64,000 nucleotides of DNA, taken from assembly GCF_009791395.1 (NCBI RefSeq), contig NZ_WSZK01000007.1, positions 1-64,000 on the forward strand, in the 5' to 3' direction. Position numbers and translations under genes: made by a program. The number at the start of each line of letters is the position of its first letter. Within the stretch, counting starts at the first letter, position 1. Under the pieces are notes generated by a model. That model worked only from the letters and a program-made list of their open reading frames with translations. It was not told where the DNA came from and ran no database searches. Positions 2,687-24,685 of this stretch are shown in pieces. This DNA is from Halomarina oriensis (lineage in GTDB: Archaea; Halobacteriota; Halobacteria; Halobacteriales; Haloarculaceae).

Positions 2687-3460
2687 TCAGTGGATGCCTT
2701 GGAGGACGCCACCGTCGACGACCAGCGACGCACCGGTGACGTACGAGGCGAGGTCGCTCGAGAGGTAGACCACCGAGTCGGCGACGTCGTTCGGCCGGCC
2801 GAAGCGTCGGAGTGGAATCGACTCCTGCTGTCGCTCGCCCTTCTCGGTTCCGACGATTTCGACGTCGCTCGTCACCATCTGCGTCTCGGTGGTTCCGGGG
2901 TGAATCGCGTTGACCCGGATGTCGGGGCCGAGTTCCGTCGCCAGCGCGTAGGTGAGCAGCCGGACCGCGCCCTTCGACGCACAGTAGATGCTGTTGTTCG
3001 GGACGCCGACGATGCCCGCCGTACTGGAGACGTTGACGATGCTCCCGCCGTCGCCCTCCATCATGCGCTCGGCGGCGGCCTTACACCCCAGGAAGACGCC
3101 CCTCGCGTTGACACCCATCACCGCCTCGTAATCCTCGACCGTGAGGTCGGTGATGTGTCCCATCTTGATGATGCCGGCGTTGTTGACCATCACGTCGATA
3201 CCGCCGAACTCGTCGGCGGCCCCGACGGCCTCACGAACGTCGTCGAGCGACGTGACGTCACACTCGACGAAGGTCGCACGGCCGTCGGTCTCCGACGCGA
3301 CCAGTTCGTCGGTCGGGCGGCCACCTTCTCTGGGGTCGCGCCGGCGGTCAGCGACGACCACGTCCGCTCCGTACTCGGCCACGGTGAGCGCGATCGCACG
3401 ACCGTTCCCGCTCGCACCGCCGGTCACCACCACCGTCGAACCGCCTAACAGTCGGGACAT
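2687..3460 (-). CDS. Short-chain dehydrogenase/reductase (SDR), EPREGG subgroup
   Basis: This 257-aa protein is a classical NAD(P)-dependent oxidoreductase. It has the TGGASGNG cofactor loop near the N-terminus, NNAG, a Ser in NVSSTAG and the YCASK catalytic pair. Asp in VVVADRR after beta-2 suggests a preference for NAD. It shares the unusual segment with DPREGG and FVECDVTS with the SDRs at 18463 and 41543, so these three form one subgroup. It ends near LVVDGG, the usual SDR C-terminus. The start codon at 3460 is divergent from the SDR at 3541. The alcohol or ketone acted on cannot be told from the sequence. Confidence 0.92.
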   Translation of the reverse strand: MSRLLGGSTVVVTGGASGNGRAIALTVAEYGADVVVADRRRDPREGGRPTDELVASETDGRATFVECDVTSLDDVREAVGAADEFGGIDVMVNNAGIIKMGHITDLTVEDYEAVMGVNARGVFLGCKAAAERMMEGDGGSIVNVSSTAGIVGVPNNSIYCASKGAVRLLTYALATELGPDIRVNAIHPGTTETQMVTSDVEIVGTEKGERQQESIPLRRFGRPNDVADSVVYLSSDLASYVTGASLVVDGGVLQGIH

Positions 3461-3540
3461 CGCTACGCAGTACCGACCCGACGACTATCACTGTTCGGAT
3501 GGTGCGAAGACTGATAGCGTCGGGCGAACCTATCACGAGT

Positions 3541-4320
3541 ATGGGTCTGTTGAGTGGGCAACTCGCGGTCGTCACGGGGGCCGGCCGAGGCCAGGGTCGG
3601 GCCGAAGCGGAACTGTTCGCGGACCACGGGGCGTCGGTCGTCGTCGCCGACGTCGACACGGAGAACGCAGAACGGGTCGTGGCGTCGATTCGAGACGGCG
3701 GCGGGGAGGCCGTCGCGGTCACACTCGACGTCTCCGAGGAGGCCGGCTGGGAGGCACTCGTGCGGACCGTCGAGGCCGACTACGGGGCTCTCGACTGTCT
3801 CGTCAACAACGCCGGCGTCGCTCGCAGCGAGTCGATAACGGACGAGACGGTCGACGGGTGGCAACACGTCGTCGACGTCGACCTGCGTGGCGTCTGGCTC
3901 GGCATGAAACACGCCATCCCGCTGTTGCGGGCGAACGGTGGCGGGAGCATCGTCAACGTCTCCTCGATATACGGCGTGCGTGGCGGGGCGGGCGACAGTG
4001 CCGCGTACCACGCCGCGAAAGGCGGGGTTACGGTCCTGACGAAGAACGCGGCGGTCGGTTACGGACCCGAAGGTATCCGGACGAACTCCCTCCATCCGGG
4101 GTACATGCGACGGCCGATGGGGCCGGGGGCGGACGAACCAGAGGCCGACGGCGACGAGAACGCGGCCCCGAGTCACGGGCCACCGGTCGAGGCGGTCCCG
4201 CTCGGTCGCTTCGGACGCTCCTCGGAGGTCGCGAGCGCGGCGCTGTTTCTCGCCAGCGACCTCGCTTCGTACGTCAACGGCGTCGAACTCTACGTCGACG
4301 GCGGCTACCTCGCGGCGTAG
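3541..4320 (+). CDS. Short-chain dehydrogenase/reductase (SDR)
   Basis: This 259-aa SDR starts at the ATG at 3541. An in-frame start 42 bases upstream would add residues outside the fold, and a TATA-like GACTGATAG lies about 25 bases before 3541. The cofactor loop is TGAGRGQG, with NNAG, NVSSIYG and the YHAAK catalytic motif. Asp in VVVADVD points to NAD. An insertion rich in acidic residues (GADEPEADGDEN) lies before the substrate-loop end. It belongs to a different subgroup from the SDR at 2687. The next gene on the same strand is the second M24 peptidase, 74 bases downstream, so co-transcription is possible. Confidence 0.92.
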   Translation: MGLLSGQLAVVTGAGRGQGRAEAELFADHGASVVVADVDTENAERVVASIRDGGGEAVAVTLDVSEEAGWEALVRTVEADYGALDCLVNNAGVARSESITDETVDGWQHVVDVDLRGVWLGMKHAIPLLRANGGGSIVNVSSIYGVRGGAGDSAAYHAAKGGVTVLTKNAAVGYGPEGIRTNSLHPGYMRRPMGPGADEPEADGDENAAPSHGPPVEAVPLGRFGRSSEVASAALFLASDLASYVNGVELYVDGGYLAA

Positions 4321-4394: not shown

Positions 4395-5588
4395 ATGTCG
4401 AGTAGTTCGATACTCGCGGAGAAGACCGACCAGGCCGTCGCCGAACTTCGGGACGCCGAACTGGACGGCTGGTTGACGTTCGCACGAGAGACACACAACC
4501 TCGGGGAGCCCTGTCTCCCGCTCGTTCTGGGCGAGGGGTTCGTCTGGCCGGGGATGGTGCTGCTCACGGCGACGGGCCGGAAGATAGCCATCACCGAGAC
4601 GCACGACGCCGACAACGTCCGTGCCCACGGCGTCCACGAGGTCTACCCGTACGAGTCGTCGCTCCAGTCGGCGTTCCACGAGGTGCTGGACGAGGTCGAA
4701 CCGAAGCGGCTCGGGCTCAACTACTCGAAGGCCAACCCGACCGCCGACGGCCTCTCGCTCGGTCTCTACGAACAGCTTCGGGAGTACATCGACGCCTCCG
4801 ACCACCGAATCGAACTCGTCAGCGCGGCACCCATCGTCGAGTCCGTTCGCGGCCGGAAGTCCGAGACCGAGACCGAGCGTATCCAGGGTGCGGTCGACAC
4901 CGCTCACGGCATCCTCCGCGAGGTCCAGACCGAGTGGCGACCGGAGTGGACCGAGGCCGAAACCGCCGCGTTCGTCCACGAACGCGTCGCCGACCTCGGT
5001 CTGGTCACGTCGTGGGACGCCGAGACCTGCCCCGCGGTCACTGCGGGCGTCGAAGGCGAGTACGGGCACGCCAAGCCCGGCGACGTGACGATTCCGCCCG
5101 GCGAGGTGATGCGTATCGACTTCGGCGTCATCCGAGAGGAGTACGCCTCGGACATGCAGCGTGTCTACTACCACCAGCCGGCCGGTGAGACTGAGATTCC
5201 CGATGGCCTACGCTCCGACTTCGACGACGCACGGGACGCGATTCGGGCGGGCTTCGACGCGCTCGAACCCGGCGTGCAGGGCTACGAAGTCGACGCGGCC
5301 GCCCGCGAGTACCTCACCGAACGAGGCTGGCCCGAGTACCAGCACGGGCTGGGCCACCAGGTCGGCCGCTACGTCCACGACGGTGGGACGTACCTCGGGC
5401 CACAGTGGGACCGCTACGGGGACGCTCCCTACGGCGAAGTTCGTGAGGGAGAGGTCTACACGCTCGAACTCGGCATCCAGACCGACTACGGGAGCATCTC
5501 CCTCGAAGAGATGGTCCAGGTGACAGCCGACGGTGCCCGGTTCATGACCGAACAGCAGACCGACCCCTGGGTGCTCGACGCGAACTGA
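4395..5588 (+). CDS. M24 family metallopeptidase (Xaa-Pro dipeptidase-like), paralogue 2
   Basis: This 397-aa protein is the same length as the M24 gene at 639 and plainly paralogous (shared EVYPYESSL and EWTEAE blocks). The metal-ligand set is complete: Asp in RIDFGV, Asp in ASDMQR, His in GLGHQVG, Glu in YTLELGI and Glu in LEEMVQV. A two-metal hydrolase active on an Xaa-Pro-like bond is the family expectation. The start at 4395 is supported by a TATA-like GACTATGTAG about 28 bases upstream. It converges with the CoA-transferase genes. Confidence 0.92.
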   Translation: MSSSSILAEKTDQAVAELRDAELDGWLTFARETHNLGEPCLPLVLGEGFVWPGMVLLTATGRKIAITETHDADNVRAHGVHEVYPYESSLQSAFHEVLDEVEPKRLGLNYSKANPTADGLSLGLYEQLREYIDASDHRIELVSAAPIVESVRGRKSETETERIQGAVDTAHGILREVQTEWRPEWTEAETAAFVHERVADLGLVTSWDAETCPAVTAGVEGEYGHAKPGDVTIPPGEVMRIDFGVIREEYASDMQRVYYHQPAGETEIPDGLRSDFDDARDAIRAGFDALEPGVQGYEVDAAAREYLTERGWPEYQHGLGHQVGRYVHDGGTYLGPQWDRYGDAPYGEVREGEVYTLELGIQTDYGSISLEEMVQVTADGARFMTEQQTDPWVLDAN

Positions 5589-5618: not shown

Positions 5619-6389
5619 TCAGTCGGTTCCGGTGTAGACGCCCTGCGGGTCGAGTTCGTCTCGAATCGTCGCCACCTCGTCGGGCGTCGGTGGGGCCGTC
5701 CGAGCGCTCTCGTCGGAGATCTCGACCTCCCACCCGGTCGCCGCCCGGACCTCGTCGGCCGAGACGTCCGGGTGGAGCGTCTCGACGTACGCGACACCGT
5801 CGTCGTCGAACCGCAGCACCGCTTTGTCGGTGATGATGGCCGACGGACCGCCGCGCAGGCCGAGTTCCGCGCGGCCCTCGCGCCCACCGACGTAGCCCGG
5901 ACTCGTCACGAAGTCGACCTCGGCCGGGAGCCGACGCTCCTCGTGAGGCGTGATGATTATCGTCCGGTGGGCGTTGCTGGCGATATCGCAGGCGCCTCCG
6001 CTTCCGGGAAGCCTCACCACGGGGTCGTCGTACTCGCCGATGACCGTCGAGTTGATGTTGCCGTGGCGGTCGATCTGTGCGCCGCCGAGGAACCCCACGT
6101 CGATGCGACCCGCCTGCAGGTACGTCGTGAACCCGTCGAACATCGGGACGACACGGAGCGCCCCCGACGCCAACACCGGGTCGCCGATGGAGAGCGGGAG
6201 CTTCGAGGGGTTCGAGTCGATGGTCCCGGACTCGTAGACCATCTGCAGGTCGGGCGCGTGCGTTCGTTTCGCCAGATTGCACGCGAGGTTGGGGACGCCG
6301 ACACCGACGAGGACGCTGTCGCCGTCGTCGAGTTCCCTCGCGGCGGCGACGACCATCGCCTCGGTCGCGGTGTAGTCGGCGTCGGTCAT
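5619..6389 (-). CDS. CoA-transferase subunit B (GctB/CatJ-like)
   Basis: This 256-aa protein is the beta-type subunit of a family I CoA-transferase. It carries the YESG motif (about residue 52-55) whose Glu forms the CoA thioester in glutaconate CoA-transferase. It also has GGAQIDRHGNINST, typical of the GctB/3-oxoadipate CoA-transferase branch. The ATG at 6389 overlaps the stop of subunit A by four bases, which shows translational coupling. It moves CoA between a donor acyl-CoA and a carboxylic acid in the cytoplasm. The acid is unknown, and no 3-oxoadipate or glutaconate pathway genes are seen nearby. Confidence 0.93.
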   Translation of the reverse strand: MTDADYTATEAMVVAAARELDDGDSVLVGVGVPNLACNLAKRTHAPDLQMVYESGTIDSNPSKLPLSIGDPVLASGALRVVPMFDGFTTYLQAGRIDVGFLGGAQIDRHGNINSTVIGEYDDPVVRLPGSGGACDIASNAHRTIIITPHEERRLPAEVDFVTSPGYVGGREGRAELGLRGGPSAIITDKAVLRFDDDGVAYVETLHPDVSADEVRAATGWEVEISDESARTAPPTPDEVATIRDELDPQGVYTGTD

Positions 6390-7300
6390 CGGTATCGCCC
6401 CATGTTCGCGGGCGTCGTGTACGCCGTCGACGGCTGGAGGTCGAGCAGTCGGTCCGCACCCAGTCGTTCGAGGTACTCGCGCCGCGAGTCGACGCCGTAC
6501 ACCCACTCGTCGAGCCAGGCCTCGACCGACTCGTGTGACGCCGACGCCTCCGCCCACTCCAGATACGCATCGTTGTCGCGGTCGTAGTAGCCCTGTGCGT
6601 AGGACGGATGCGAGCCGTAGGGCTCCTCGACGACGTAGTCGACGTCGCGGTTCGTCAGTGTCGTCCGGTTCGGGTCGCTCCGGATGACCGACTCGTCGAC
6701 CAGTTCCTCGACGCTGAGGACGACCGTCTCGGCGGCCATCGCGGCGTCCGCTATCTCCCCGGAGATGCCCCAGAGATGGGCGTTGCCGTTCTCGTCCGCT
6801 CGCTGTGCGCGGACGACCGCGACGTCGGGGGTGAGCGGCGGGACGGCGTGGAGTTCGCCGCCACCGAACGGGTCCTCGACGCGCCGGATGTTGTCGTTGT
6901 GTGCGGGCAGGTCGGAGCCAGCGTAGGTCCGAACCGGCATGAACGGGAGCGCACGAGCACCGGCCGCCAGGCGAGCGGTCAGCCCGTAGTGTGAGTACTC
7001 CTCGATCTCGATCTCGTTCGGGACGCCGTCCTCGACGGCGCGCCTGAACGCCTGGAGGCTCCCGACACCGGGGTTCCCGGCCCACGAGAACGTCACCTTC
7101 GAGGCACACCCGGCGGCGACGAGTTGGTCGTACACCAGATCCGGGGTCGCGCGAACCAGGTGGAGGTCGCGCAGCCCCGCTCGAATCATCTCGTGGCCCG
7201 ACGCGAACGGGATGAGATGGGTGAACCCCGCGAGGTAGACGGTGTCCCCGTCGTCGATAGCACTGGAGACGGCATCGGCCGTCGTGGTCAACACACTCAT
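6386..7300 (-). CDS. CoA-transferase subunit A (GctA/CatI-like)
   Basis: This 304-aa protein is the alpha-type subunit. It has an N-terminal AVSSAIDDGDTVYLAGF block, GNPGVGSLQAFRRAVEDG and PFGGGELHAVPPLTPDVAV, as in GctA-type CoA-transferases. It is first in a two-gene operon with subunit B downstream, overlapping by four bases. Length and order match the heterodimeric (or alpha2beta2) enzymes of this branch. It is divergent from the aminotransferase at 7533. Together with the oxidoreductases in the region it could activate or release an organic acid made during amino-acid breakdown, but that is inference. Confidence 0.92.
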   Translation of the reverse strand: MSVLTTTADAVSSAIDDGDTVYLAGFTHLIPFASGHEMIRAGLRDLHLVRATPDLVYDQLVAAGCASKVTFSWAGNPGVGSLQAFRRAVEDGVPNEIEIEEYSHYGLTARLAAGARALPFMPVRTYAGSDLPAHNDNIRRVEDPFGGGELHAVPPLTPDVAVVRAQRADENGNAHLWGISGEIADAAMAAETVVLSVEELVDESVIRSDPNRTTLTNRDVDYVVEEPYGSHPSYAQGYYDRDNDAYLEWAEASASHESVEAWLDEWVYGVDSRREYLERLGADRLLDLQPSTAYTTPANMGRYR

Positions 7301-7532: not shown

Positions 7533-8873
7533 ATGAGTGATTCTGAGCACGATGCGGCGTCACGGTCACGACGTGACGTCGACCGGGAGCAGTTGAAACG
7601 GACGACCGACGACCTCCTGATGCCCGCCGTCTACGGCCAGCAGGACCTCGTCCTCGACCGGGGGGAGGGCGTTCGACTGTGGGACGTCGACGGGAACGAG
7701 TTCCTCGACGCCGTCGCGGGCATCGCCGTCGTCAACACCGGCCACTCCCACCCGAGAGTCGTCGAGGCGATTCAGGAGCAGGCCGCGAACTACGTCCAGT
7801 CGTCGTACTACTTCTACCACGAACCGATGGCGGACCTGCTCCAGACGCTCGCGGACCGCTCCCCGGGGGCGCTGAAGAACACCTTCTTCGGCAACTCGGG
7901 GGCGGAAGCCGTCGAGGGCGGTATCAAGCTGGCGAAGAAGGCCACCGGAAAGAGCGAGTTCATCAGCCTCCGTGGGTCGTTCCACGGTCGGACACCGGGA
8001 GCGATGGCGCTCACCGGTCAGAACAAGTACACGCACACGTTCAACCCGCACATGCCCGGCTGTTACAAGATTCCCTCGCCGAACTACTACCGGTACGGCG
8101 ACCGGTTCGCCGACGAGGAGGAGTTCGGCAAGTGGGCCGCCGAGCAGGTCCACGAGGTGATCAAGTACGACTCGAACGACGACGTCGCCGCGGTAGTCGT
8201 CGAGCCGATTCAGGGAGAGGGCGGCATCGTCGTCCCACCGAAAAACTACCTGCCGTACCTCAAGGAGATCTGTGAGCAAGAGGACATCCTCTTTTTCGCC
8301 GACGAGGTCCAGACGGGGATGGGTCGCACCGGGAAGCTGTTCGCCGTCGAGCACTGGGACGTCGACCCCGACATCATGACCCTCGCGAAGGGCATCGCGA
8401 GCGGCGTCCCGTTCGGCCTGTTCATGGGCACCGAGGAAGTGAGCGAGACGATGGCACCGGCGGACCACTACACGACGTACGGCGGCAGTCCCATCGCCTG
8501 TGCGGCCGCGAACGCGACGTTCGACGTCATCGACGAGGAGGGACTCGTCGAGAACGCGGCTACGGTCGGGGACGAGGCGCTCGACCGCTTCGAGGAACTG
8601 AAGGAGGACCACCAGCTCGTCGGCGACGCACGCGGGAAGGGCCTCCACCTGGGACTCGAACTCGTCGAGGACCGAGAGACGAAAGCGCCGGCCGAGGAGG
8701 GGGCGAAGGCCGTCCGCGCGGCCGCTCACGAACGCGGGCTGCTCGTCTCGCGCTGTGGCACCCACGGCAACGTCCTCCGACTCACCCCGCCGCTGTCGAT
8801 CACGAGCGACGAGATGGAGGAGATGCTCGACCGCCTCGACGCCGCGTTCGACGACGTCGAAGCCGCCACCTGA
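7533..8873 (+). CDS. Class III PLP-dependent aminotransferase (GABA/acetylornithine aminotransferase-like)
   Basis: This 446-aa protein starts at the ATG at 7533. An in-frame upstream start at 7458 would place the TATA-like element inside the gene. PLP contacts are clear: NSGAEAVE (phosphate loop), Asp in FFADEVQTGMGRTG (about residue 257) and the Schiff-base Lys in TLAKGIASG (286). The family transfers omega-amino groups from 4-aminobutyrate, ornithine derivatives, beta-alanine or taurine-like compounds to a 2-oxo acid. It heads a same-strand row with GcvPA-like, GcvPB-like, VOC and amidohydrolase genes. The intergenic gap of 123 bases holds a separate promoter for the next gene. The substrate is not assignable. 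Confidence 0.93.
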   Translation: MSDSEHDAASRSRRDVDREQLKRTTDDLLMPAVYGQQDLVLDRGEGVRLWDVDGNEFLDAVAGIAVVNTGHSHPRVVEAIQEQAANYVQSSYYFYHEPMADLLQTLADRSPGALKNTFFGNSGAEAVEGGIKLAKKATGKSEFISLRGSFHGRTPGAMALTGQNKYTHTFNPHMPGCYKIPSPNYYRYGDRFADEEEFGKWAAEQVHEVIKYDSNDDVAAVVVEPIQGEGGIVVPPKNYLPYLKEICEQEDILFFADEVQTGMGRTGKLFAVEHWDVDPDIMTLAKGIASGVPFGLFMGTEEVSETMAPADHYTTYGGSPIACAAANATFDVIDEEGLVENAATVGDEALDRFEELKEDHQLVGDARGKGLHLGLELVEDRETKAPAEEGAKAVRAAAHERGLLVSRCGTHGNVLRLTPPLSITSDEMEEMLDRLDAAFDDVEAAT

Positions 8874-8996
8874 GCAGACCGCGGGGCCTCCTCTCCCGTC
8901 CGGTCGTGAGGGGTCGAGGAAACCGACGGCAAGCGAGTCGTTCACTCCCGCCACCACGGAAAATTCTATGTGCCATGACCTCAACTGACGTACCAC

Positions 8997-10397
8997 ATGG
9001 CGACACACCATCCTCACATGCCGAACGCCACCGAGGAGGCGACGTCGGCGATGCTCTCCGCGGTCGGCGCGAGCGACGTCGAGGAACTGTACGAACAGAT
9101 ACCGGAGCGACTGCGCTTCCGTGGCGAACTCGGACTGCCGGAGCCGATGACCGAGATAGAGCTCCAACAGCACGTCGGCGGCCTGCTGGAGAGAAACGAG
9201 ACCTGCGAGTCGAACCTGAACTTCAAGGGCGCGGGCTGCTGGCAGCACTACGTCCCGCCCGTCTGTGACGAGATCATCGAGCGCCGGGAGTTCCTCACGT
9301 CGGAGTGGGGGTCGCCGGAGTCGGACAAGGGGCGCAACCAGGCGTGGTTCGAGTTCTGTAGCCAACTCGGCGAACTCCTCGAACTCGACGCCGTCGGCCT
9401 CCCCGTCTACAGCTGGGGGAACGCCGCCGGGTTCGCGATGCGGATGGCCCACCGGCTCACCGGGCGGACGGAGGTGCTCGTCCCCGAGAGCATCTCCCCC
9501 GAGCGACAGAGCGTGATGGAGAACTACAGTCGCCTCTCGTCGGGGGAGCGACGACTCACCATCGAGACGGTCGCGTTCGACCCCGAGACCGGGGAACTGG
9601 ACCTCGACGACCTCAGAGAGCGCTGTTCGTCTTCGACCGCCGCCGTCTACTACGAGTCGCCGTCGTATCTCGGTACCATCGAGTCGGGAGCCGAGACCAT
9701 CGCCGACGTCGCTCACGAAGCGGGCGCGGAGTGTATCGCGGGCGTCGACCCCATCACGCTCGGCGTCCTCGACAGTCCCGCGACCCACGGTGCGGACATC
9801 GTCGTCGGGACGACACAGCCCCTCGGCATCCACATGAACGGCGGAGCGTGCAGCGGCTTCATCGCCAGCCGCGACGAGGAGGAGTACGTCGTCGAGTACC
9901 CGACGCTGCTGTTGAGCGTGACGAACACCGCGACCGAGGGCGAACTGGGGTACGCGTTCATGCCCGAACAGCTCCACCGGTCGTCGTACGGTCTCCGGGA
10001 GGACGGCAACGACTACACCGGGACGTCGGTCTACCTCTGGACCATCGCCAACGCCGTCTACATGTCGCTGCTCGGCAAGCACGGGTTCCGCGAACTGGGC
10101 GAACTCGTCGTCGAGCGGTCACACTACGCGGCCCAACGGCTCTCCGCCATCGACGGCGTCGAGGTCCGCCTCTCGCCGTCGTTCTTCAAGGAGTTCGTCG
10201 TCGACTTCGAGGACGCTCCGGTCTCCGCCAGCGAGGTCAACGACCACCTCAAGGCCGAGGGCATCTTCGGTGGCGTCCTCCTCGGCGAGGAGTTCCCGAC
10301 GCTCGGCGACGCGGCGCTCTACTGCGTCACGGAGGTCCACACGCAGGCCGACGTCGACAGACTGGTCGACGCGGTCACGGAGGTGGTCGAGGCATGA
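8997..10397 (+). CDS. GcvPA-like protein (glycine decarboxylase P-protein alpha-subunit homologue)
   Basis: This 466-aa protein is a fold-type I PLP-family protein without its own Schiff-base lysine, as in the N-terminal half of the glycine cleavage P-protein. Recognisable blocks are FKGAGCWQHYVPP near residue 76 and a C-terminal GIFGGVLLGEEFP and YCVTEVHT block. The stretch that reads YTPYQPE in canonical GcvPA is replaced by EWGSPESDKGRNQ, so the active-site lid differs. A second ATG at 9018 is possible. A TATA-like AAATTCTATG is 27-37 bases upstream of 8997. It overlaps the GcvPB-like gene by four bases. No GcvH or GcvT gene lies in the window, so glycine cleavage itself is not assured. 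Confidence 0.88.
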   Translation: MATHHPHMPNATEEATSAMLSAVGASDVEELYEQIPERLRFRGELGLPEPMTEIELQQHVGGLLERNETCESNLNFKGAGCWQHYVPPVCDEIIERREFLTSEWGSPESDKGRNQAWFEFCSQLGELLELDAVGLPVYSWGNAAGFAMRMAHRLTGRTEVLVPESISPERQSVMENYSRLSSGERRLTIETVAFDPETGELDLDDLRERCSSSTAAVYYESPSYLGTIESGAETIADVAHEAGAECIAGVDPITLGVLDSPATHGADIVVGTTQPLGIHMNGGACSGFIASRDEEEYVVEYPTLLLSVTNTATEGELGYAFMPEQLHRSSYGLREDGNDYTGTSVYLWTIANAVYMSLLGKHGFRELGELVVERSHYAAQRLSAIDGVEVRLSPSFFKEFVVDFEDAPVSASEVNDHLKAEGIFGGVLLGEEFPTLGDAALYCVTEVHTQADVDRLVDAVTEVVEA

Positions 10398-12031
10398 GCA
10401 CCCCCAGCACCGACGAGCGCCCGCGTGACGACGAGGCGGAGCGAGCGACGAACGAGGGCGCACGCGAGGGCCGCCGTGGTGGGACCGTCCGGGAGTACCA
10501 CGCGAAGGTCTGGGACGAACCCTCCATCATGGAGATGGGTGCGGCGGGACGCCGCGGTATCACGTTCCCGGAGGCCGAATCGGCGGTCCGTGACACCGTC
10601 GGGTCGGCCGCGGACTACCTCCCCGACGCCGTGGCCCGCGAGGACGACCCCGCGCTCCCGGAGGTGGCCGAACCGTTCGTGGTCCGTCACTACCTCCACC
10701 TGGCCCAGGAGACGCTCGGGTTCACCAACATCAGCATGTGGGGGACGTGTACGATGAAGTACGCCCCGACGATGAACGAGCAACTGGAGAAGCGGCACCT
10801 CTCGAACCTCCACCCCAGACAGGACGACGACACGCTCCAGGGGATGCTGGAGATCGCCCACGAACTCGACGGCTACCTGCAGGAGCTCTCGGGGATGGAC
10901 CGGTTCTCGTTCCAGCCGGCCAGCGGGACGCAGTCGGCGTTCGTCTTCACCAGCCTGCTCCGGAAGTACCTCGAGGACCGCGGCGAACTCGACCAGCGAA
11001 CCGAGATCGTCACGACGCTCTACTCACACGCCTGTCTGCCGGCGACGGCGGACGTCGCCGGGTTCGACGTCGTCACGCTCCAGCCCGGCGAGAACAGCTA
11101 TCCGTCGACCGAGGCGCTGGAGGCGGCGGTCTCCGAGAAGACGGCCGCGCTGATGATCGTCAACCCGAACGACCTCGGCGTCTACAACCCGAACGTCGAC
11201 GAGTGGGTCGACATCGTCCACGACGCCGGCGGCCTCTGCTTCTACGACCAGGCCAACTTCAACAGTACGATGGGCATCTCCAGAGCACGCGACGTCGGCT
11301 TCGACGCCTCACACTACATGCTCCACAAGACGTTCGGGAACCCGAAAGGTGGGCTCGGCCCGGCCGCCGGCGCGTTCGGCTGTCGGGAGGAACTCGTCGA
11401 GTACCTCCCGACCCCGCTCGTCGAGTACGACGAGGCCGACGACCACTACTCCCTCGACTACGACCGGCCCAACAGCGTCGGGAAGGTCCGCGAGTTCTGG
11501 GGCAACCTCCCGCTCGTGATGAAGGCGTACGTGTGGGTCCGGAGCATGGGCGCGGAGGGAATCGTCGAGGCGAGCAACCTCTCGGTGCTCGGGAACAACT
11601 ACCTCGAAACGCTGCTGGAGGACGTTCCGGGGCTGGCGAAGACCGTCGAGAACGTCACACAGCGTCGGATGGAGATGACGCGGTACAGCTGGGGTGAACT
11701 GTTCGAGGACACCGGCGTCAGCACGGTCGACATCCGTCGTCGCCTGACCGACTTCGGCATCGACGCCTACTGGATGAGCCACGACCCCTGGACGTACGAC
11801 GAACCGTTCACGCCGGAACCCGGCGAGATGCACTCGAAGGAGAACATCGAGACGTACGCCGAGGCGCTCCGGCGCATCGCCGAGGAGGCCTACGACGACC
11901 CCGAACGCGTCAAGACGGCCCCGCACAACCAGTCCATCGACCGCGTCGACGAGGAGCGTATCGACGACCCCGACCAGTGGGCGATGACGTGGCGGGCGTA
12001 CCAGCGGAAGTTCGGCGACCACGAGGACTGA
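10394..12031 (+). CDS. GcvPB-like protein (glycine decarboxylase P-protein beta-subunit homologue)
   Basis: This 545-aa protein begins at the ATG that overlaps the GcvPA-like stop (ATGA). It carries the PLP site of the P-protein: Asp in FYDQANFN (about residue 285) and the Schiff-base Lys in YMLHKTFGNPKGG (312). Canonical GcvPB reads LHKTF-x2-PHGGGGPG, so the glycine-rich loop after the lysine differs here (PKGGLGPAAG). It is expected to form a heterodimer or heterotetramer with the preceding protein and to decarboxylate an amino acid through PLP. The acceptor would normally be lipoyl-GcvH, which is not encoded here. The first 30 residues are a charged, low-complexity extension. Confidence 0.9.
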   Translation: MSTPSTDERPRDDEAERATNEGAREGRRGGTVREYHAKVWDEPSIMEMGAAGRRGITFPEAESAVRDTVGSAADYLPDAVAREDDPALPEVAEPFVVRHYLHLAQETLGFTNISMWGTCTMKYAPTMNEQLEKRHLSNLHPRQDDDTLQGMLEIAHELDGYLQELSGMDRFSFQPASGTQSAFVFTSLLRKYLEDRGELDQRTEIVTTLYSHACLPATADVAGFDVVTLQPGENSYPSTEALEAAVSEKTAALMIVNPNDLGVYNPNVDEWVDIVHDAGGLCFYDQANFNSTMGISRARDVGFDASHYMLHKTFGNPKGGLGPAAGAFGCREELVEYLPTPLVEYDEADDHYSLDYDRPNSVGKVREFWGNLPLVMKAYVWVRSMGAEGIVEASNLSVLGNNYLETLLEDVPGLAKTVENVTQRRMEMTRYSWGELFEDTGVSTVDIRRRLTDFGIDAYWMSHDPWTYDEPFTPEPGEMHSKENIETYAEALRRIAEEAYDDPERVKTAPHNQSIDRVDEERIDDPDQWAMTWRAYQRKFGDHED

Positions 12032-12081
12032 CCGCCTCCACCGAAACGTATTTTCATCAGGCAGTGTACCTCTCAGCCGGT

Positions 12082-12570
12082 ATGGCAGAGAAACCCTATC
12101 CACGTGGCCTCGCGCACGTCGGCTTCACCGTCTCGGACATCGACGCCGCCACGCAGTGGTACCAGGACGTCTTCGGGTTCAACGTCGTGATGGAGCCGAC
12201 GACCATCGAGAACGAGGGCTACTTCGGACGACAGGTGACCGACCTGCTCGGCGACTTCGGGACGATGACGATCGCCCACCTCTCGACGGGGAACCAGATC
12301 GGTATCGAACTGTTCGAGTTCGACGAGACCGACGGCGAGAGCGACCCCGACCCGAGAGCGCCGGGGCTGTTCCACCTCTCGATAATCGATCCGGACGTGT
12401 CGGGCCTCGCCGAACGTATCGAGGAACACGGCGGCGAGGCGTACTCCGAGGAGTGGGGCGTCAACCACGAGGACGACGACTTCACGCTGATCTACTGTCG
12501 GGACCCGTGGGGGAACCTCGTCGAGGTGTTCCCACAGAGCGACGAACGCGTCTACAGCAACCTGGGGTGA
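12082..12570 (+). CDS. VOC family (glyoxalase/dioxygenase fold) protein
   Basis: This 162-aa protein contains GLAHVGFTVSDIDAATQWY at the N-terminus and RDPWGNLVEVF at the C-terminus, the two halves of a vicinal-oxygen-chelate domain. Metal ligands appear to be His in LAHVGF, Glu in IGIELFE, His in LFHLSI and Glu in NLVEVF. Family members act as glyoxalases, dioxygenases, epimerases or racemases on metal-chelated substrates. The ATG at 12082 is 50 bases after the GcvPB-like stop and has a TATTTTC element about 30 bases upstream. Position in the row suggests action on a product of the PLP enzymes, which is inference. Confidence 0.9.
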   Translation: MAEKPYPRGLAHVGFTVSDIDAATQWYQDVFGFNVVMEPTTIENEGYFGRQVTDLLGDFGTMTIAHLSTGNQIGIELFEFDETDGESDPDPRAPGLFHLSIIDPDVSGLAERIEEHGGEAYSEEWGVNHEDDDFTLIYCRDPWGNLVEVFPQSDERVYSNLG

Positions 12571-12661
12571 ACGCGTCGGACCTCGCCACCCCGTCGGTGG
12601 CGACGCTCGCCGCCATCGGGTGGAGCAACGTTCTTCGTTGACGCCCGCCGAGTGCGATACG

Positions 12662-13471
12662 ATGACAGTCACAGATTTCCGAGCACGACCGAACACGAGC
12701 GAGTACATGGCGGCGTACCCGCCGGACTACGACTTCTTCGACCTGGTTCCGGGCCACGACCACCCCGGAACGGACACGCTCGAGGCGTTCGTCTCGGCGC
12801 TCGACGACGTAGGCGTCGACCGGGCGGTCTTCACCGGTCGACAGACCGTCGAGGACGGGCGGGTCGTTCGCGGCGTGACGAACGACTACGTCGCCGACTG
12901 CGTCGACCGATACCCCGACCGACTGGTCGGGTTCGCTGGCGTCGACTGCGAGACGGACGTCGTGGCGGCGACGCGCGAACTCGAACGGGCGGTTCGGGAC
13001 CTCGACCTCTCCGGGGTGTCGTTCGACCCGACATCCCCCGACGCCCGGACCAACTACCCCCTGTACGCGAAAGCCGCTGAACTCGACGTACCGGTCGTCC
13101 TCACGCTCGGTCCCAACGTCGGGACCGTCGGCGACAGCCACGACGCGGCCCGCGTCGACCGCGTCGCCACCGACTTCCCCGACCTCACCTTCGTCTGCTC
13201 GCACGCCGCCTGGCCGCGCCCGACCGAGTTCGTCGCGCTGGCCTACCGACGCCCGAACGTCTACATCGACGGGTCCATCTACCAGTTCTTCCCGGGCGCG
13301 GAGCCGTTCGTCGCGGCCGCCGAGGACCTCATCCGGGAGAAGGTGCTGTACGCGAGTGCCTTCCCCTTCGACTCGCTCGACGCCATCGAGCGGTTCAGAG
13401 CCCTGCCGTTGAGCGACGCTGCGACCGAGGCGATCGTCTCCGAGAACGCGAGCCGTCTCCTCGACGACTAA
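12662..13471 (+). CDS. Amidohydrolase-2 family (TIM-barrel) protein
   Basis: This 269-aa protein resembles amidohydrolase-2 (PF04909) enzymes, which include decarboxylases such as ACMSD and 2-pyrone-4,6-dicarboxylate hydrolases. Matching features are DRYPDRLVGFAGVD, FTPxSPDARTNYPLYAKAAEL-like phasing, FVCSHAAWPRP and KVLYASAFPFD before the C-terminal helix. The usual N-terminal HxH metal motif is not obvious; a single His-Asp-His (GHDHPG, about residue 31-36) may replace it. The ATG at 12662 was chosen because the upstream in-frame start gives a non-conserved extension. It is the last gene of the same-strand row that begins at 7533. Confidence 0.85.
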   Translation: MTVTDFRARPNTSEYMAAYPPDYDFFDLVPGHDHPGTDTLEAFVSALDDVGVDRAVFTGRQTVEDGRVVRGVTNDYVADCVDRYPDRLVGFAGVDCETDVVAATRELERAVRDLDLSGVSFDPTSPDARTNYPLYAKAAELDVPVVLTLGPNVGTVGDSHDAARVDRVATDFPDLTFVCSHAAWPRPTEFVALAYRRPNVYIDGSIYQFFPGAEPFVAAAEDLIREKVLYASAFPFDSLDAIERFRALPLSDAATEAIVSENASRLLDD

Positions 13472-14570: not shown

Positions 14571-14739
14571 CTCTGCCACGAGCGACCCCCGTCGGCCGAG
14601 CGGGTGGACTCGCTCCGCGAACGGTCCACTTCGGCCGGTCGCTCACGCGACTCCGGGAGACGACGGCGAGTTCACTCGGACGGCGGTCGCCCGAGTCGCT
14701 CGCCGTGAGCTTCATGTCCGGGGGTGGTGATTGCCGTGT

Positions 14740-15858
14740 ATGAGCGAGACGCGCATCGGACTGGTCGTCAACCCGATCGCCGGCATGGGCGGGCGAGTCG
14801 GCCTCAAGGGGACCGACAGCCGTTCGGTCCTCGAACGGGCGCGCGAACTCGGTGCCGAACCCGTCTCGCCGGACCGGACGGGGGAGGCGCTCGACGAACT
14901 CGCCGCACAGGGAGTGGGCGTCGACCTCCTCGTCGGGCCGGGGCCGATGGGCGAGACCGTCGCCACGTCCCGTGGGTTCGAACCGACCGTCGTCACGAGC
15001 CTCGAGGGGGACGAGACGACGGCGGCCGACACGAGGCGTGTCGCGGACGCACTCGTCGATGCGGACGTCGAGTTGCTCGTCTTCGCCGGCGGCGACGGGA
15101 CGGCACGGGACGTCGCCGACGCGGTCGACCAGCGAGTGCCGGTCGTCGGCATCCCCACGGGTGTGAAGATATACTCCGGCGTGTTCGCGCCGACACCGAG
15201 GGCTGCTGGCCGACTCCTCGCGGCGTTCGTCCGGGACGAGGTCACGAGCGTCGACCTCCGGGAGGTGATGGACATCGACGAGTCCGCGTTCCGCGAGGAC
15301 CGTCTCTCGGCGACGCTCTACGGCTACCTGCGCGTCCCACGACAGCGACGCCTCGTCCAGAGTCCGAAGTCCGGCGGCGGGACGAGCGACGACGCGGCGA
15401 AGGCCGCTATCGCCGCCGCAGTCGTCGAGCGGATGGAACCGGACCGCTACTACGTCGTGGGGCCGGGGACGACAACCAGCGCTGTCATGGACCGTCTCGA
15501 CCTCCCACACTCGCTGCTCGGCGTCGACGTCGTCCGCGACGGGAAACTGGTGGGTCGGGACGTGAACGAGGCGGACCTCCTCGAACTGCTCGACGGCGTG
15601 GACGCCGAAATCGTCGTCGGGGTCATCGGTGGCCAGGGGTTCGTGTTCGGGCGCGGGAACCAGCAGTTGAGCGGCCGTGTCGTCGAGCGCGTGGGTGTCG
15701 AGAACGTCACTATCCTCGCCACGCAGGAGAAACTCCTCTCGCTCGACGGACCGCTGTACGCCGACACCGGCGACGACGACGTCGACGCCGAACTCACCGG
15801 CTACGTCCGGGTCGTGACCGGTCGTGGCCGGACGATGGTCGTCGAGATGGCCGGGTGA
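14740..15858 (+). CDS. ATP-NAD kinase family protein (AcoX/COG3199-like)
   Basis: This 372-aa protein starts at the ATG at 14740; an in-frame TTG three codons upstream is less likely. It shows GLVVNPIAGMGGRVGLKGTD at the N-terminus, the GGDGTARDV motif of the NAD kinase/diacylglycerol kinase superfamily (about residue 112) and IPTGVKIYSGVFA. The order and length match the COG3199 branch, which includes AcoX of acetoin catabolism clusters. The biochemical role of that branch is poorly defined; phosphorylation of NAD or of a small metabolite is the family-based guess. It stands alone between the divergent cyclodeaminase gene and the convergent AOR gene. Confidence 0.88.
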   Translation: MSETRIGLVVNPIAGMGGRVGLKGTDSRSVLERARELGAEPVSPDRTGEALDELAAQGVGVDLLVGPGPMGETVATSRGFEPTVVTSLEGDETTAADTRRVADALVDADVELLVFAGGDGTARDVADAVDQRVPVVGIPTGVKIYSGVFAPTPRAAGRLLAAFVRDEVTSVDLREVMDIDESAFREDRLSATLYGYLRVPRQRRLVQSPKSGGGTSDDAAKAAIAAAVVERMEPDRYYVVGPGTTTSAVMDRLDLPHSLLGVDVVRDGKLVGRDVNEADLLELLDGVDAEIVVGVIGGQGFVFGRGNQQLSGRVVERVGVENVTILATQEKLLSLDGPLYADTGDDDVDAELTGYVRVVTGRGRTMVVEMAG

Positions 15859-15909: not shown

Positions 15910-17571
15910 TCAGTACTCGACGGCGGCCTCCGGCACCGTCCCCCGGTCCGTCCACCCGCGTTCGCCGTAGTACTCGTCGAGCGCCGCCTCGAAGTCCGGC
16001 AGGTCGTACGGCAACCGGTCGTCCGAGCGGTCGAAGCCACGCTGGTTGTTGAAGTGGCGTTCGAGCGCCACCGTCCGCGCGCCGACGTCGAGGAGCGTCT
16101 CGAACTCCGCCCCGAACAGCGTCTCGAACCGGTCGGGGGTCATGTAGTCCCGCGAGAACTTACAGACGACGCCGCTGTCACAGAGCGCCATCTTGTCCTC
16201 CTGGTGGGCGATGCGACCGGCCTTGCCGAGCGTCCCATCCGGCAGGAGCGCCTCGTCCTCGTCGACGAGCGGGTACTCGACCGAGTAGAACGTCGCGTAC
16301 ATGTGGTCGGCTCCGCGGTTGGAGACGGCATAGGAGAGCCCCTGACCGTTGAGGACGCGCCCCTCGTGGGCGGCGAAGTCCATCCCCTTGACCGACCAGT
16401 TGTCGACGCCGAGGTCGTCGGCGATGCGATCGATGCCCTCCGCGAGCGTGTCGCCGACCCCCTCCCGACGGGCGATCTGCTCGACGAGCTCCCAGATGAG
16501 GTCGCGGTTGCCGAACTCGTCTTCGGCCGCCAGATACGCCGCGATGGTGTTCCCCGCGGAGATGGCGTCGAGACCCAACTCGTCACAGAGCTTGTTCGAC
16601 TTCATCACGTCGACGATGTCGTCGACGCCGGCGTTCGACCCGAACGCCATCGCCACCTCGAACTCCGGGCCTTCCGTCTCGATGCCCCGTTCCTCGTCCC
16701 GCGTCGGGAGTTTGCAGGCGAACGCACAGGCAGAACAGGTCCCCTTCTTGTACTTCTTGGCCTCGACGGCCGCGCCGTTGATACCCTCGACGCCCTCGAA
16801 CTGCCGTTCGGAGAAGTAGTACGACGGCAGGCCCTCCACCTCGTTCGCCAGGTCCATCACGGAGACGGTCCCCTGCCGTTTCATGATGTGGTCGTCGGTC
16901 GCGGCCTCGCGGTGGACCTCCGCCTGCGTGGCCGGTATCTCGACGTCGGGAGCGGAGTCGCCGTCGAACGTCACCGCCTTGACGTTCTTCGCCCCGAGGA
17001 CGGCCCCGAGGCCACCCCGGCCGAACGCACGCTCTTTCGACGTCATGATGGAGGCGAACCGGACCTCGTTCTCGCCGGCCGGCCCGACGACCGCCGTCTG
17101 GTCGGCGCTCACGTCGAACTCCCGTTCGAGCGTCCCGAGCGTCTCCGAGACGGTCGCTCCCGCGAGGTCGGGCGTCGGGACGAACTCGACGCCCTCGTCG
17201 GTGACGTGGACGGTCAGGAGTTCGTCGGCCGCCCCGACGAACTCGACCGCGCTGTAGCCCGTGTCGGCGAAGTTCCGCGACAGGAACCCACCGGCGTTCG
17301 ACGAGCAGAGGCCGTTCGTGAGCGGCGAGACCGCCGTCGCGTTCATCCGACCGGTGAACGACATCGTCGACGCCTGCATCGGCCCCGTCGTGAAGAGGAG
17401 ACGGTTGTCCGGCCCGAGCGGGTCCACGTCGAAGGGGACGCGTTCGTGCGCGAGTCGCGTCGCAACACCCCGACCACCGATGAACGACTCCAACACGTCG
17501 TCGACGTCCGTCGTCGTCGTCGTTCGGTCGCTCACGTCGATGCTGAGGAGGTCGCCTTTCGCGTGAAGCAT
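15910..17571 (-). CDS. Aldehyde ferredoxin oxidoreductase family protein (tungsten-pterin enzyme)
   Basis: This 553-aa protein has the AOR N-terminal domain (ESFIGGRGVATRL, LLFTTGPMQAST, FTGRMNATAVSP). It also has the [4Fe-4S] motif C-x2-C-x3-C at residues 279-286, with the fourth Cys probably at 470 (VVCKF). GAKNVKAVTFDG and NGQGLSYAVSNRGADHMY are the usual AOR blocks around the bis-pterin site. Such enzymes oxidise aldehydes to acids with ferredoxin as acceptor. The length is below that of the hyperthermophile enzymes (about 605 aa), as is common in haloarchaeal paralogues. It could remove aldehydes made by the aminotransferase route nearby, which is inference. Confidence 0.92.
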   Translation of the reverse strand: MLHAKGDLLSIDVSDRTTTTTDVDDVLESFIGGRGVATRLAHERVPFDVDPLGPDNRLLFTTGPMQASTMSFTGRMNATAVSPLTNGLCSSNAGGFLSRNFADTGYSAVEFVGAADELLTVHVTDEGVEFVPTPDLAGATVSETLGTLEREFDVSADQTAVVGPAGENEVRFASIMTSKERAFGRGGLGAVLGAKNVKAVTFDGDSAPDVEIPATQAEVHREAATDDHIMKRQGTVSVMDLANEVEGLPSYYFSERQFEGVEGINGAAVEAKKYKKGTCSACAFACKLPTRDEERGIETEGPEFEVAMAFGSNAGVDDIVDVMKSNKLCDELGLDAISAGNTIAAYLAAEDEFGNRDLIWELVEQIARREGVGDTLAEGIDRIADDLGVDNWSVKGMDFAAHEGRVLNGQGLSYAVSNRGADHMYATFYSVEYPLVDEDEALLPDGTLGKAGRIAHQEDKMALCDSGVVCKFSRDYMTPDRFETLFGAEFETLLDVGARTVALERHFNNQRGFDRSDDRLPYDLPDFEAALDEYYGERGWTDRGTVPEAAVEY

Positions 17572-18462: not shown

Positions 18463-19227
18463 TTACGGCGTTCGGAACGCACCGCCGTCGACGATGAGCG
18501 ACTCGCCGTTGACGAACGACGCGGCCGGGTCGGCCAGGAACAGCGCGGCTCTCGCCACGTCCTCGGGGGTCGCCACGCGCCCGAGCGGGACGCGCTCGCC
18601 GTGCTCGTCGAGATCGTACATCCCGCCGAGGTCCTCACTCTGGAGTGCGGTGCGGACGGGGCCGGGATGGATGACGTTCGCCCGGACGCCCGACGGCCCC
18701 AACTGGACGGCCAGCGAGTAGGTGAGCGTCCTGACCGCACCCTTCGACATCCCGTAGACCGTCGAGTTCGTCGTCCCCTGGAGGCCGGCGTCGCTCGACA
18801 TGTTGACGATAGCTCCGCCGTCGCCGTCGACCATCCGCTTGGCCGCGACCTGCGACCCGAAGAACGCCCCCTTGGCGTTGACCTCCATGAGACGGTCGTA
18901 CGCCGACTCGGTGACGTCCAGAAACGACTCCACGCGGGTCAGTCCCGCGTTGTTCACCATGACCGACACGCCGCCGAACGCCTCGGCGGCGTCGACGGCC
19001 GCTTCGAGATCCGCCACCTCACGCACGTCACAGTCGACGTAGCGCGCAGACGAGTCCGTCTCCGCTTCGATTCGGTCGTGTGTGGGGACGCCGCCCTCCC
19101 GTGGCTCCGAGGTAATGTCCGCGACGACGACGTCGGCCCCGTGGTCGGCGAACGTCAGCGCGATGGCCCGACCGATACCGCTCGCGCCACCCGTGACGAC
19201 GGCGACCTCGTTCGTCAGGTCAGTCAT
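18463..19227 (-). CDS. Short-chain dehydrogenase/reductase (SDR), EPREGG subgroup
   Basis: This 254-aa SDR starts at the ATG at 19227; nine extra codons upstream would precede the fold. Motifs are TGGASGIG, VNNAGL, NMSSDAG and YGMSK. It shares SEPREGGVPTHDRIEAETD with the SDRs at 2687 and 41543 and belongs with them. Asp in VVVADIT suggests NAD. It lies between the EthD gene (convergent) and the Pot-type permease operon (same strand, 81 bases downstream). Confidence 0.92.
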   Translation of the reverse strand: MTDLTNEVAVVTGGASGIGRAIALTFADHGADVVVADITSEPREGGVPTHDRIEAETDSSARYVDCDVREVADLEAAVDAAEAFGGVSVMVNNAGLTRVESFLDVTESAYDRLMEVNAKGAFFGSQVAAKRMVDGDGGAIVNMSSDAGLQGTTNSTVYGMSKGAVRTLTYSLAVQLGPSGVRANVIHPGPVRTALQSEDLGGMYDLDEHGERVPLGRVATPEDVARAALFLADPAASFVNGESLIVDGGAFRTP

Positions 19228-19308
19228 ACGCGAGTCGACCCGACGCGTCGGCAAGTAGCTACCGGCGGGTGCGTCCGAAGGGGGGAGAGACCGACCGCGT
19301 ACGCGGCG

Positions 19309-23591: not shown

Positions 23592-24533
23592 CTACAGCTC
23601 CGCTTCGAGCGCTTGCAGCGGCTCGACGGCGTCTTCGAGTGCCGCTCGCGCCTCGTCGTGGAGCGGCCGGTAGGGTTTGCGCGGTGGCCCACCGTTCTGC
23701 CCGCCGATTTCGGCGAGCGCGTTGAGCACGCCGAACTCGTAGGGCTCTGCGGGCGCGTCCGGCAGTCGGTTCATGTCGCCGAACGCCCGGACGATGCGGC
23801 GGTTGGCCTCCCGGACCCACTCGTCGTGGTGGTTGCCGGCGCGACACTCCTCGTAGAACTTCACGAACAGTTTCGGCGCGGACCACGTCAGGATGCCGAT
23901 GAACCCCTTCCCGCCGAGCTGTGAGTCGTGCCAGAACGGGGCGTCGTACGGGGAGATGAAGTTGACGTCGTCGGCGACGGTCTGGAGCACCTCGTCGTGG
24001 TGGTAGAGCGCCATGTTCGACTCCTTGACGGCTTTGATGCTGTCGATGTCGAGCAGGTCCTCGCGCCAGATGTCCGGCGTGATGTTACAGTCCGTGACCG
24101 GCGGGAAGTTGTAGACCATGACGGCGATGTCGCCGTTCAGGGCGTCGTCGACGTCGCGGAAGAACGGCCCGACCCACTCCGGTTCGAGGGGGAGCATGTA
24201 GGGGAGTTCGACCATCGTCCCGTCGGCCCCCGCCTGCTCCGCGTACGTCGTGCGGTCGATGACCTCGCGCTGACTGGTGCCGGACCCGCCGATGACGCAG
24301 GTGATGTCGTCGGCCGCGTCGACACAGACGTCGGTCAGTTCCGCGAACTCGGACTCCGTCGGGGCGTTGACCTGTCCCATGCTCGATAGCTGGACGAAGC
24401 CGTGGACGCCCTGCGATTCGAGGTGTTCGATGTTCGCACGGATGCCGTCGTAGTCGATCTCCTGGTCGTCGGTGAGACACAGCGGCGAGAGGGCCATGAT
24501 GCCCTCGATCGGATTTCTGTTGAACGTAGTCAT
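23592..24533 (-). CDS. DapA/N-acetylneuraminate-lyase family protein, paralogue 1
   Basis: This 313-aa TIM-barrel aldolase/lyase starts at the ATG at 24533; 23 extra codons upstream are not conserved with its paralogue. Family residues are visible: Tyr in VMVYNFPP (about 141) and the Schiff-base Lys in AVKESN (170). GGSGTSQREVI replaces the usual GTGSNST-type loop. Members condense or cleave pyruvate-type adducts or deaminate/dehydrate sugar acids and pyrroline carboxylates. The gene at 36058 is a close paralogue with identical length and motifs. It lies just upstream of the Pot-type importer on the same strand. Confidence 0.93.
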   Translation of the reverse strand: MTTFNRNPIEGIMALSPLCLTDDQEIDYDGIRANIEHLESQGVHGFVQLSSMGQVNAPTESEFAELTDVCVDAADDITCVIGGSGTSQREVIDRTTYAEQAGADGTMVELPYMLPLEPEWVGPFFRDVDDALNGDIAVMVYNFPPVTDCNITPDIWREDLLDIDSIKAVKESNMALYHHDEVLQTVADDVNFISPYDAPFWHDSQLGGKGFIGILTWSAPKLFVKFYEECRAGNHHDEWVREANRRIVRAFGDMNRLPDAPAEPYEFGVLNALAEIGGQNGGPPRKPYRPLHDEARAALEDAVEPLQALEAEL

Positions 24534-24685
24534 GGTTGGGTTCTGTGAGTGAACAGATGTGGTATGCCAACCCAACAGTCTTGAACGTTTCCATCGCCAC
24601 ACCGCCGTGGCGTCGGTCGCTTCTCCGTGTCGACAGCCCGCGATGACGACGTAGATTTATCGCACACCCGCCGAAAGCAGAGGCG

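What the first reader, a model, noticed from the sequence alone, without database searches (positions are those of the whole stretch)
7533..13471. GcvP-like two-subunit enzyme in a row without GcvH or GcvT
A class III aminotransferase, GcvPA-like, GcvPB-like, VOC and amidohydrolase genes lie in order on one strand, with the two GcvP-like genes translationally coupled. The glycine cleavage partners GcvH and GcvT are absent from the window. The GcvPA-like lid region and the glycine-rich loop after the PLP lysine of the GcvPB-like protein differ from the canonical motifs. This could be a PLP decarboxylase or amine lyase that has left the glycine cleavage system and acts on another amino acid. It is the best candidate here for an undescribed pathway.
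Basis: partly seen in the sequence, partly recalled or inferred. Interest (0 to 1): 0.72.

Follow-up and report, generated by a model that had tools for sequence, protein, structure and literature searches.

The report
Glycine-enzyme relatives without the glycine system
This salt-loving archaeon carries a pair of genes that databases label as part of the glycine-breakdown machine, but they belong to a separate, widely scattered family that occurs in bacteria with no glycine-cleavage machine at all and travels with its own NAD-kinase-like gene, so it probably breaks down some other, still unidentified amino acid.

Summary
GcvPA-like (8997-10394) and GcvPB-like (10394-12028) genes overlap by ATGA. 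The same genome has a separate, better-scoring gcvPA/gcvPB pair, with gcvT and gcvH, on another contig. The window pair belongs to a well-supported clade (100/100) apart from all sampled canonical P-proteins. In Halobacteria it is very rare (2 of 391 sampled genomes) and groups with Rhodococcus and alphaproteobacterial plasmid genes, which suggests horizontal transfer. Seven bacterial genomes with the pair have no GcvT and five of these have no GcvH, so it does not need the glycine cleavage system (GCS). PLP-binding residues are kept; a canonical active-site Tyr is deleted in all members and the loop modelled as H-protein dock is rewritten. Best reading: an H-protein-independent PLP enzyme on the P-protein scaffold that cleaves a C-C bond at the amino carbon, most likely an amine-forming decarboxylase in an undescribed catabolic pathway. 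GCS independence is well supported; substrate and exact reaction are not shown. Databases probably misname it.

The parts
8997..10397 (+). GcvPA-like subunit (466 aa), alpha-type subunit of the P-protein family; lacks the canonical Tyr98 (Thermus numbering) and has Glu at Tyr95
10394..12031 (+). GcvPB-like subunit (545 aa) with PLP Lys312, Asp285, His212 kept; family-specific Asp260, Trp381, Glu427, Arg430, Ser462, His463
10394..10397 (+). ATGA overlap of PA stop and PB start (translational coupling)
14731..15858 (+). NAD-kinase-like protein (NAD_kinase + NAD_kinase_C), the most constant neighbour of this pair across phyla (about 50% identical to those next to bacterial pairs)
7533..8873 (+). 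class III aminotransferase; a class III homologue lies near the pair in a few other loci only (L060, L063, L070, L103/L109, L170, L181)
3499..4320 (+). short-chain dehydrogenase (SDR); an SDR lies next to most relatives, but they are from different SDR subfamilies and this window is rich in SDRs, so the link here is weak
15910..17571 (-). aldehyde ferredoxin oxidoreductase homologue; AOR homologues also in L064, L082, L112
13509..14579 (-). ornithine cyclodeaminase/mu-crystallin family protein; homologue near the pair only in Bipolaricaulota (L103, L109)
5619..7300 (-). two CoA-transferase subunits, possible later step
12016..12570 (+). VOC protein; not found in any other neighbourhood of the family
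12662..13471 (+). Amidohydro_2 protein; not found in any other neighbourhood of the family
4395..5588 (+). M24 peptidase-family protein; 56% identical homologue about 10 kb from the pair in Natronosalvus halobius

Best explanation
The pair is a PLP-dependent alpha/beta enzyme that descends from the glycine-cleavage P-protein but works without the H- and T-proteins. SHOWN: distinct clade, intact PLP-site residues, remodelled substrate and modelled H-protein regions, occurrence in genomes with no GCS, linkage to an NAD-kinase-like gene. INFERRED: the beta subunit binds PLP at Lys312; an amino acid other than glycine forms the external aldimine in the cleft shared with the alpha subunit; the P-protein chemistry (breaking a C-C bond at the amino carbon to give a carbanion) is kept, but the carbanion is protonated and not passed to lipoyl-H-protein. 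The simplest net reaction is decarboxylation to an amine, which an amine oxidase or class III aminotransferase turns into an aldehyde, oxidised by AOR or a dehydrogenase and activated by a CoA-transferase or acyl-CoA synthetase. The NAD-kinase-like protein and SDR supply or use NADP(H) in the same pathway.
For: Separate canonical gcvPA/gcvPB in the same genome (C19, 667 bits against 496 for the window GcvPB) with gcvT and gcvH on C19. The clade is one side of a 100/100 branch in a 41-row tree, and the window sits with Rhodococcus and alphaproteobacteria at 100/100. Seven genomes with the pair have no GcvT match; five of them also have no GcvH and no GcvPB that scores at canonical level (G395, G414, G419, G423, G427). 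G414, G423 and G427 are isolate genomes of 5.7-9.4 Mb. Thermus PA Tyr98 is deleted in 75/75; PB Thr214 is Asp and Val378 is Arg in 83/83 and His375 is acidic in 83/83, while Lys266, Asp239 and His166 are kept in 83/83. Human equivalents Tyr161 and Tyr164 are labelled active site, and Arg373 and Lys376 H-protein interface (PMC7259800; numbering mapped by me through). NAD-kinase-like gene on the same strand downstream in 42 of 53 non-Bacilli loci and directly upstream of PA in 7 of 7 bacterial plasmid loci. Amine-to-acid genes: Gemmobacter NADK-PA-PB-permease-SDR-acyl-CoA synthetase-primary-amine oxidase; AMP-binding enzyme next to PB in Rhodococcus; AOR and CoA-transferase here.
Against: No activity, substrate or structure of any member was found. 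Amine oxidase is seen in one locus and AOR in four, so the amine-to-acid reading rests on few cases. SDR and NAD-kinase-like partners do not obviously serve a plain decarboxylase. Adjacency to glycine-using operons (gcv in L081 and L088; grd in L048, L051, L053) would suit an enzyme that makes glycine better. NCBIfam assigns both subunits to GcvPA/GcvPB above its cut-offs. The H-protein interface is itself only a docking model in the cited paper.
Confidence: 0.45

Rival explanations
1. C-C lyase on a beta-hydroxy- or beta-keto-alpha-amino acid (retro-aldol, or retro-Claisen after SDR oxidation), giving glycine plus an aldehyde or acid; the new invariant Arg430 would hold the carboxylate that is retained.
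For: An orthologous SDR in all 28 Bacilli loci and SDRs of several subfamilies in many others; pair directly beside a canonical GCS operon (L081, L088) or glycine/sarcosine/betaine reductase genes (L048, L051, L053); AOR could oxidise the aldehyde; sphingosine-1-phosphate lyase is among the next nearest solved folds.
Against: The position of Arg430 in the active site is not shown (model pLDDT about 66, one subunit only). Adjacency to grd or gcv may only reflect amino-acid fermentation islands. Fold similarity to S1P lyase is generic for this fold type.
Confidence: 0.27
2. A catabolic pathway for a hydroxylated basic amino acid, such as collagen 5-hydroxylysine: glycosidases free it, SDR oxidises the hydroxyl, the pair cleaves next to the terminal amino carbon.
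For: In Bacilli SDR-PA-PB sits in operons with LacZ-type beta-galactosidase, an MGH1-like glycosidase, galactokinase and sugar ABC transporters; second paralogue beside a polar amino-acid ABC transporter and an M20 peptidase; OCD, class III aminotransferase and saccharopine-dehydrogenase-like genes in a few loci.
Against: No M9 collagenase in 38 genomes with the pair, though that search had no positive control. No literature support found. Several loci have none of these genes.
Confidence: 0.1
3. A second glycine decarboxylase that still uses the lipoyl-H-protein encoded elsewhere, with sequence drift.
For: NCBIfam equivalog hits above cut-off; own genome and 33 of 38 tested bacterial genomes do have GcvH.
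Against: Genomes with the pair but neither GcvH nor GcvT; family-wide loss of Tyr98 and rewriting of the loop modelled as H-protein dock; long monophyletic branch.
Confidence: 0.08
4. Ordinary canonical glycine decarboxylase of this organism, misread as unusual.
For: Database names only.
Against: Separate canonical set on contig C19; not in the canonical clade.
Confidence: 0.01

Closest known systems
Glycine cleavage system P-protein, two-subunit type (GcvPA/GcvPB; EC 1.4.4.2; Thermus thermophilus 1wyt/1wyu)
   Same: Two homologous subunits encoded back to back, PLP lysine and pocket residues in the beta-type subunit, fold (best solved matches by sequence and by Foldseek)
   Different: Separate clade; PA Tyr98 absent, Tyr95 replaced here; modelled H-interface loop rewritten; PB Asp260, Trp381, Glu427, Arg430, Ser462-His463; occurs without GcvT and GcvH; linked to an NAD-kinase-like gene
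ATP-NAD kinase family (NAD_kinase PF01513 plus NAD_kinase_C PF20143)
   Same: The linked gene matches both Pfam domains above cut-off; the genome has a second copy elsewhere (C20)
   Different: The copy here travels with the GcvP-like pair; its substrate is untested
Sphingosine-1-phosphate lyase and SufS cysteine desulfurase (fold type I PLP enzymes)
   Same: General fold
   Different: 12-16% identity; no membership claimed

Membership tests
Glycine cleavage P-protein (GcvPA/GcvPB) | Homology to both subunits above curated cut-offs | tested here: met
   NF001696 420.6 bits (cut-off 364), NF003346 495.5 bits (cut-off 441); so the cut-offs do not separate this clade
Glycine cleavage P-protein (GcvPA/GcvPB) | PLP lysine, pyridine-N aspartate and conserved histidine in PB | tested here: met
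   Lys312, Asp285, His212 aligned to conserved Thermus residues, 83/83
Glycine cleavage P-protein (GcvPA/GcvPB) | Conserved PA active-site motif Y-T-x-Y-Q-x-E | tested here: not met
   Tyr98 deleted in 75/75 members, present in 59/59 canonical; Tyr95 is Glu here
Glycine cleavage P-protein (GcvPA/GcvPB) | PA loop REQxIRRxKATSN, modelled H-protein interface | tested here: not met
   Glu307/Gln308 replaced by Thr or Ser/Ser and Arg311 lost in most members (interface from PMC7259800, a docking model)
Glycine cleavage P-protein (GcvPA/GcvPB) | Falls within the clade of canonical P-proteins | tested here: not met
   100/100 separation in a 41-row tree
Glycine cleavage P-protein (GcvPA/GcvPB) | Genome encodes H- and T-proteins to work with | tested here: not met
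   Family-wide: 7 genomes without GcvT, 5 of them without GcvH. The window's own genome does have both.
Glycine cleavage P-protein (GcvPA/GcvPB) | Decarboxylates glycine with lipoyl-H-protein | not testable with these tools
   Needs purified protein
Fold type I PLP enzyme | Fold and Schiff-base lysine | tested here: met
   Best Foldseek matches 9a73_B, 1wyt_B, 1wyu_B (modest-confidence model); Lys312
ATP-NAD kinase family (gene 14731-15858) | NAD_kinase and NAD_kinase_C domains over cut-off | tested here: met
   79.0 and 40.9 bits against 25.5 and 23.7
ATP-NAD kinase family (gene 14731-15858) | Phosphorylates NAD | not testable with these tools
   Needs assay

The most novel reading that the evidence does not exclude
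A GCS-independent clade of two-subunit P-protein homologues, spread thinly over many bacterial phyla and transferred into haloarchaea, that catalyses an undescribed PLP-dependent C-C cleavage in an undescribed amino-acid catabolic pathway with its own NAD-kinase-like partner. To my knowledge it would be the first function of the P-protein scaffold outside glycine cleavage.
Probability: 0.6. Interest if true: 0.75.

Novelty: new variant of a known kind. Interest (0 to 1): 0.62.

Why it matters
The P-protein is known, as far as I am aware, only for glycine cleavage, where it hands its product to a lipoyl-H-protein. A whole clade that has dropped that partner shows the scaffold can be re-used, hides an uncharacterised catabolic step in soil, marine, gut and hypersaline microbes, and is currently annotated as glycine dehydrogenase. 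Genome-based claims of a glycine cleavage or reductive glycine pathway could be wrong when based on these genes. The small set of family-specific residues and the NAD-kinase-like partner make the question directly testable.

Tried and rejected
Natural PA-PB fusion: a 1013-aa ORF in L060 looked like one, but its first half is an out-of-frame read of PA; the notebook entry that calls it a fusion is wrong. First tree carried three canonical rows with the wrong label, which came from a score threshold; regrouped by residues and rebuilt. Gln286 first looked family-wide but is Ser, Ala or His in the Rhodococcus/alphaproteobacterial group. Collagen link: no M9 collagenase found, but the search had no positive control. 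Literature searches for a described function found nothing relevant; the library holds only open-licence papers. IMG/VR scan: no relative on viral contigs. The AlphaFold model of PB alone is of modest confidence (mean pLDDT 66) and gives no coordinates here, so I could not place Glu427 and Arg430 relative to PLP. SDR linkage in the window itself is not informative because the first 42 kb hold many SDR genes.
Full report
WHAT IS THERE. PA and PB overlap at ATGA. The neighbourhood also holds an ornithine-cyclodeaminase family gene (-), an NAD-kinase-like gene (14731-15855), an aldehyde ferredoxin oxidoreductase homologue (-), two CoA-transferase subunits (-), three M24 family genes, several SDRs and an ABC transporter.

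IS IT THE CELL'S GLYCINE CLEAVAGE ENZYME? No. The same genome has a second pair on contig C19 that scores 667 bits against the GcvPB model (window 496) and 339 against the P-protein Pfam model (window 149). A GcvT and a GcvH lie about 11-12 kb from it on the same contig. Of 391 sampled Halobacteria only one other genome has an ortholog of the window pair (73% identity; the other listed matches were 35-44%, canonical level), and none of the other 145 genomes of the family had one. That other copy lies on a plasmid of Natronosalvus halobius.

A SEPARATE FAMILY. A scan of 84,980 species genomes gave 106 relatives behind 133 pattern matches; the best 80 are 44-53% identical to the window GcvPB and lie in Bacillota, Chloroflexota, Thermodesulfobacteriota, Spirochaetota, Synergistota, Bipolaricaulota, Lentisphaerota and others. 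Plasmids add Rhodococcus and alphaproteobacteria at 51-57%; these were missed by the patterns, so 106 is a lower bound. In a maximum-likelihood tree all 26 members used are one side of a 100/100 branch against 15 canonical GcvPB, and the haloarchaeal pair groups with the Rhodococcus/alphaproteobacterial set at 100/100. The simplest reading is transfer from bacteria; the direction is inferred.

INDEPENDENCE FROM GCS. I searched the genomes behind 38 of these loci. Five (G395, G414, G419, G423, G427) have no GcvH match, and seven of the twelve genomes tested for GcvT have none, including those five. In G404, G410, G414, G423 and G427 the pair is the only GcvPB of any kind. These five correspond to named isolates (Paenibacillus lutrae, Paenibacillus sp. 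HGH0039, P. pinisoli, Cohnella phaseoli, P. tuaregi; titles, handles). An enzyme that needs H- and T-protein would be useless there. G395 and G419 are metagenome assemblies, so their absences weigh less.

RESIDUES. PLP-binding residues are kept in all members: Lys312, Asp285, His212 in the window (Thermus Lys266, Asp239, His166). What changes is the rest. PA Tyr98 is deleted in 75 of 75. Its human counterpart Tyr164, and Tyr161 (Thermus Tyr95), are labelled active site in a model-based study (PMC7259800); I mapped the numbering through the HMMER alignments using Lys754 as anchor. PA Glu307-Gln308 become Thr/Ser-Ser and Arg311 is lost in most, in the loop where the same study places the H-protein contacts Arg373 and Lys376. 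In PB, Thr214 to Asp, Tyr333 to Trp, His375 to an acidic residue, Val378 to Arg, and a Ser-His pair at 404-405 are family-wide. Within the family, haloarchaea, Rhodococcus and alphaproteobacteria form a subgroup without Tyr95 (Glu, Val or Ile) and with Lys in place of the His six residues after the PLP lysine.

GENOMIC CONTEXT. The most constant neighbour is an NAD-kinase-like gene, about 50% identical to window 14731-15855. It follows PB on the same strand in 42 of 53 non-Bacilli loci, within 300 bp in 37; three Synergistota loci have it upstream; five of the other eight end within 500 bp of PB; L049, L120 and the Natronosalvus locus have room but lack it. It lies directly upstream of PA in all seven bacterial plasmid loci. 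Bacilli lack it but have one orthologous SDR with the pair in all 28 loci. SDRs from other subfamilies lie beside many other pairs. Other neighbours by lineage: amino-acid permeases, DUF436, sigma-54 activators; LacZ-type beta-galactosidase, MGH1-like glycosidase, sugar ABC transporters and galactokinase in Bacilli; canonical GCS operon in L081 and L088; glycine/sarcosine/betaine reductase genes in L048, L051, L053; AMP-binding enzymes in Rhodococcus, acyl-CoA synthetase and primary-amine oxidase in Gemmobacter. VOC and amidohydrolase of the window had no homologue in any compared locus; aminotransferase, OCD and AOR in a few.

HOW IT MOST LIKELY WORKS. Shown: a P-protein homologue with its PLP residues intact, changed at the substrate and modelled H-protein regions, that exists without GCS partners and travels with an NAD-kinase-like gene. 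Inferred: it keeps the P-protein's C-C cleavage at the amino carbon but protonates the product itself. Context in Gemmobacter (amine oxidase, acyl-CoA synthetase) and in the window (class III aminotransferase, AOR, CoA-transferase) fits amino acid to amine to aldehyde to acid to acyl-CoA, so I rank a decarboxylase first (0.45). The SDR link and adjacency to glycine-using operons fit instead a lyase that makes glycine from a hydroxy- or keto-amino acid (0.27). Hydroxylysine is an attractive but weak specific guess (0.1). That the pair is not the GCS P-protein I hold at about 0.9.

NOVELTY. No paper in the searched open library describes this clade; subscription papers were not searchable. By sequence it is a variant of a known family; its independence from GCS makes a new function likely.

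Noticed in passing
window 2687-3460, 3499-4320, 18463-19254, 24686-25408, 26649-27428, 33419-34186, 41543-42307: At least seven SDR-type genes, two DHDPS-family genes (23592-24602, 36058-37002), three M24 genes and a P450 (59381-60637): the contig is rich in catabolic genes.
   Followed up: partly
window 8997-12031 (NCBIfam NF001696 and NF003346): The curated cut-offs for GcvPA and GcvPB admit this non-GCS clade, so public annotations call it glycine dehydrogenase (for example on Rhodococcus, Paracoccus and Natronosalvus plasmids).
   Followed up: yes
L072, L074, L085, L071, L117: The pair sits with DUF436 and a B12-binding radical SAM enzyme (TIGR03975 family, RiPP maturation C-methyltransferase, over cut-off in L117).
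   Followed up: no
L048, L051, L053: GrdX, reductase component B subunits (one cut short at an in-frame stop, likely selenocysteine), a TrxB-like gene and GrdA/GrdC genes follow the SDR-PA-PB-NADK module.
   Followed up: partly
L155, L157: Neobacillus genomes have a second copy of the pair beside a polar amino-acid ABC transporter, an M20 peptidase-family protein and SDRs.
   Followed up: partly
G000:C16:149530-150237: A second, weaker GcvT-family match (156 bits) in the window's genome; a similar one exists in G250.
   Followed up: no
L175 (G000:C20): A second NAD-kinase-like gene of the same family as window 14731-15855, 51% identical, in an unrelated neighbourhood.
   Followed up: partly
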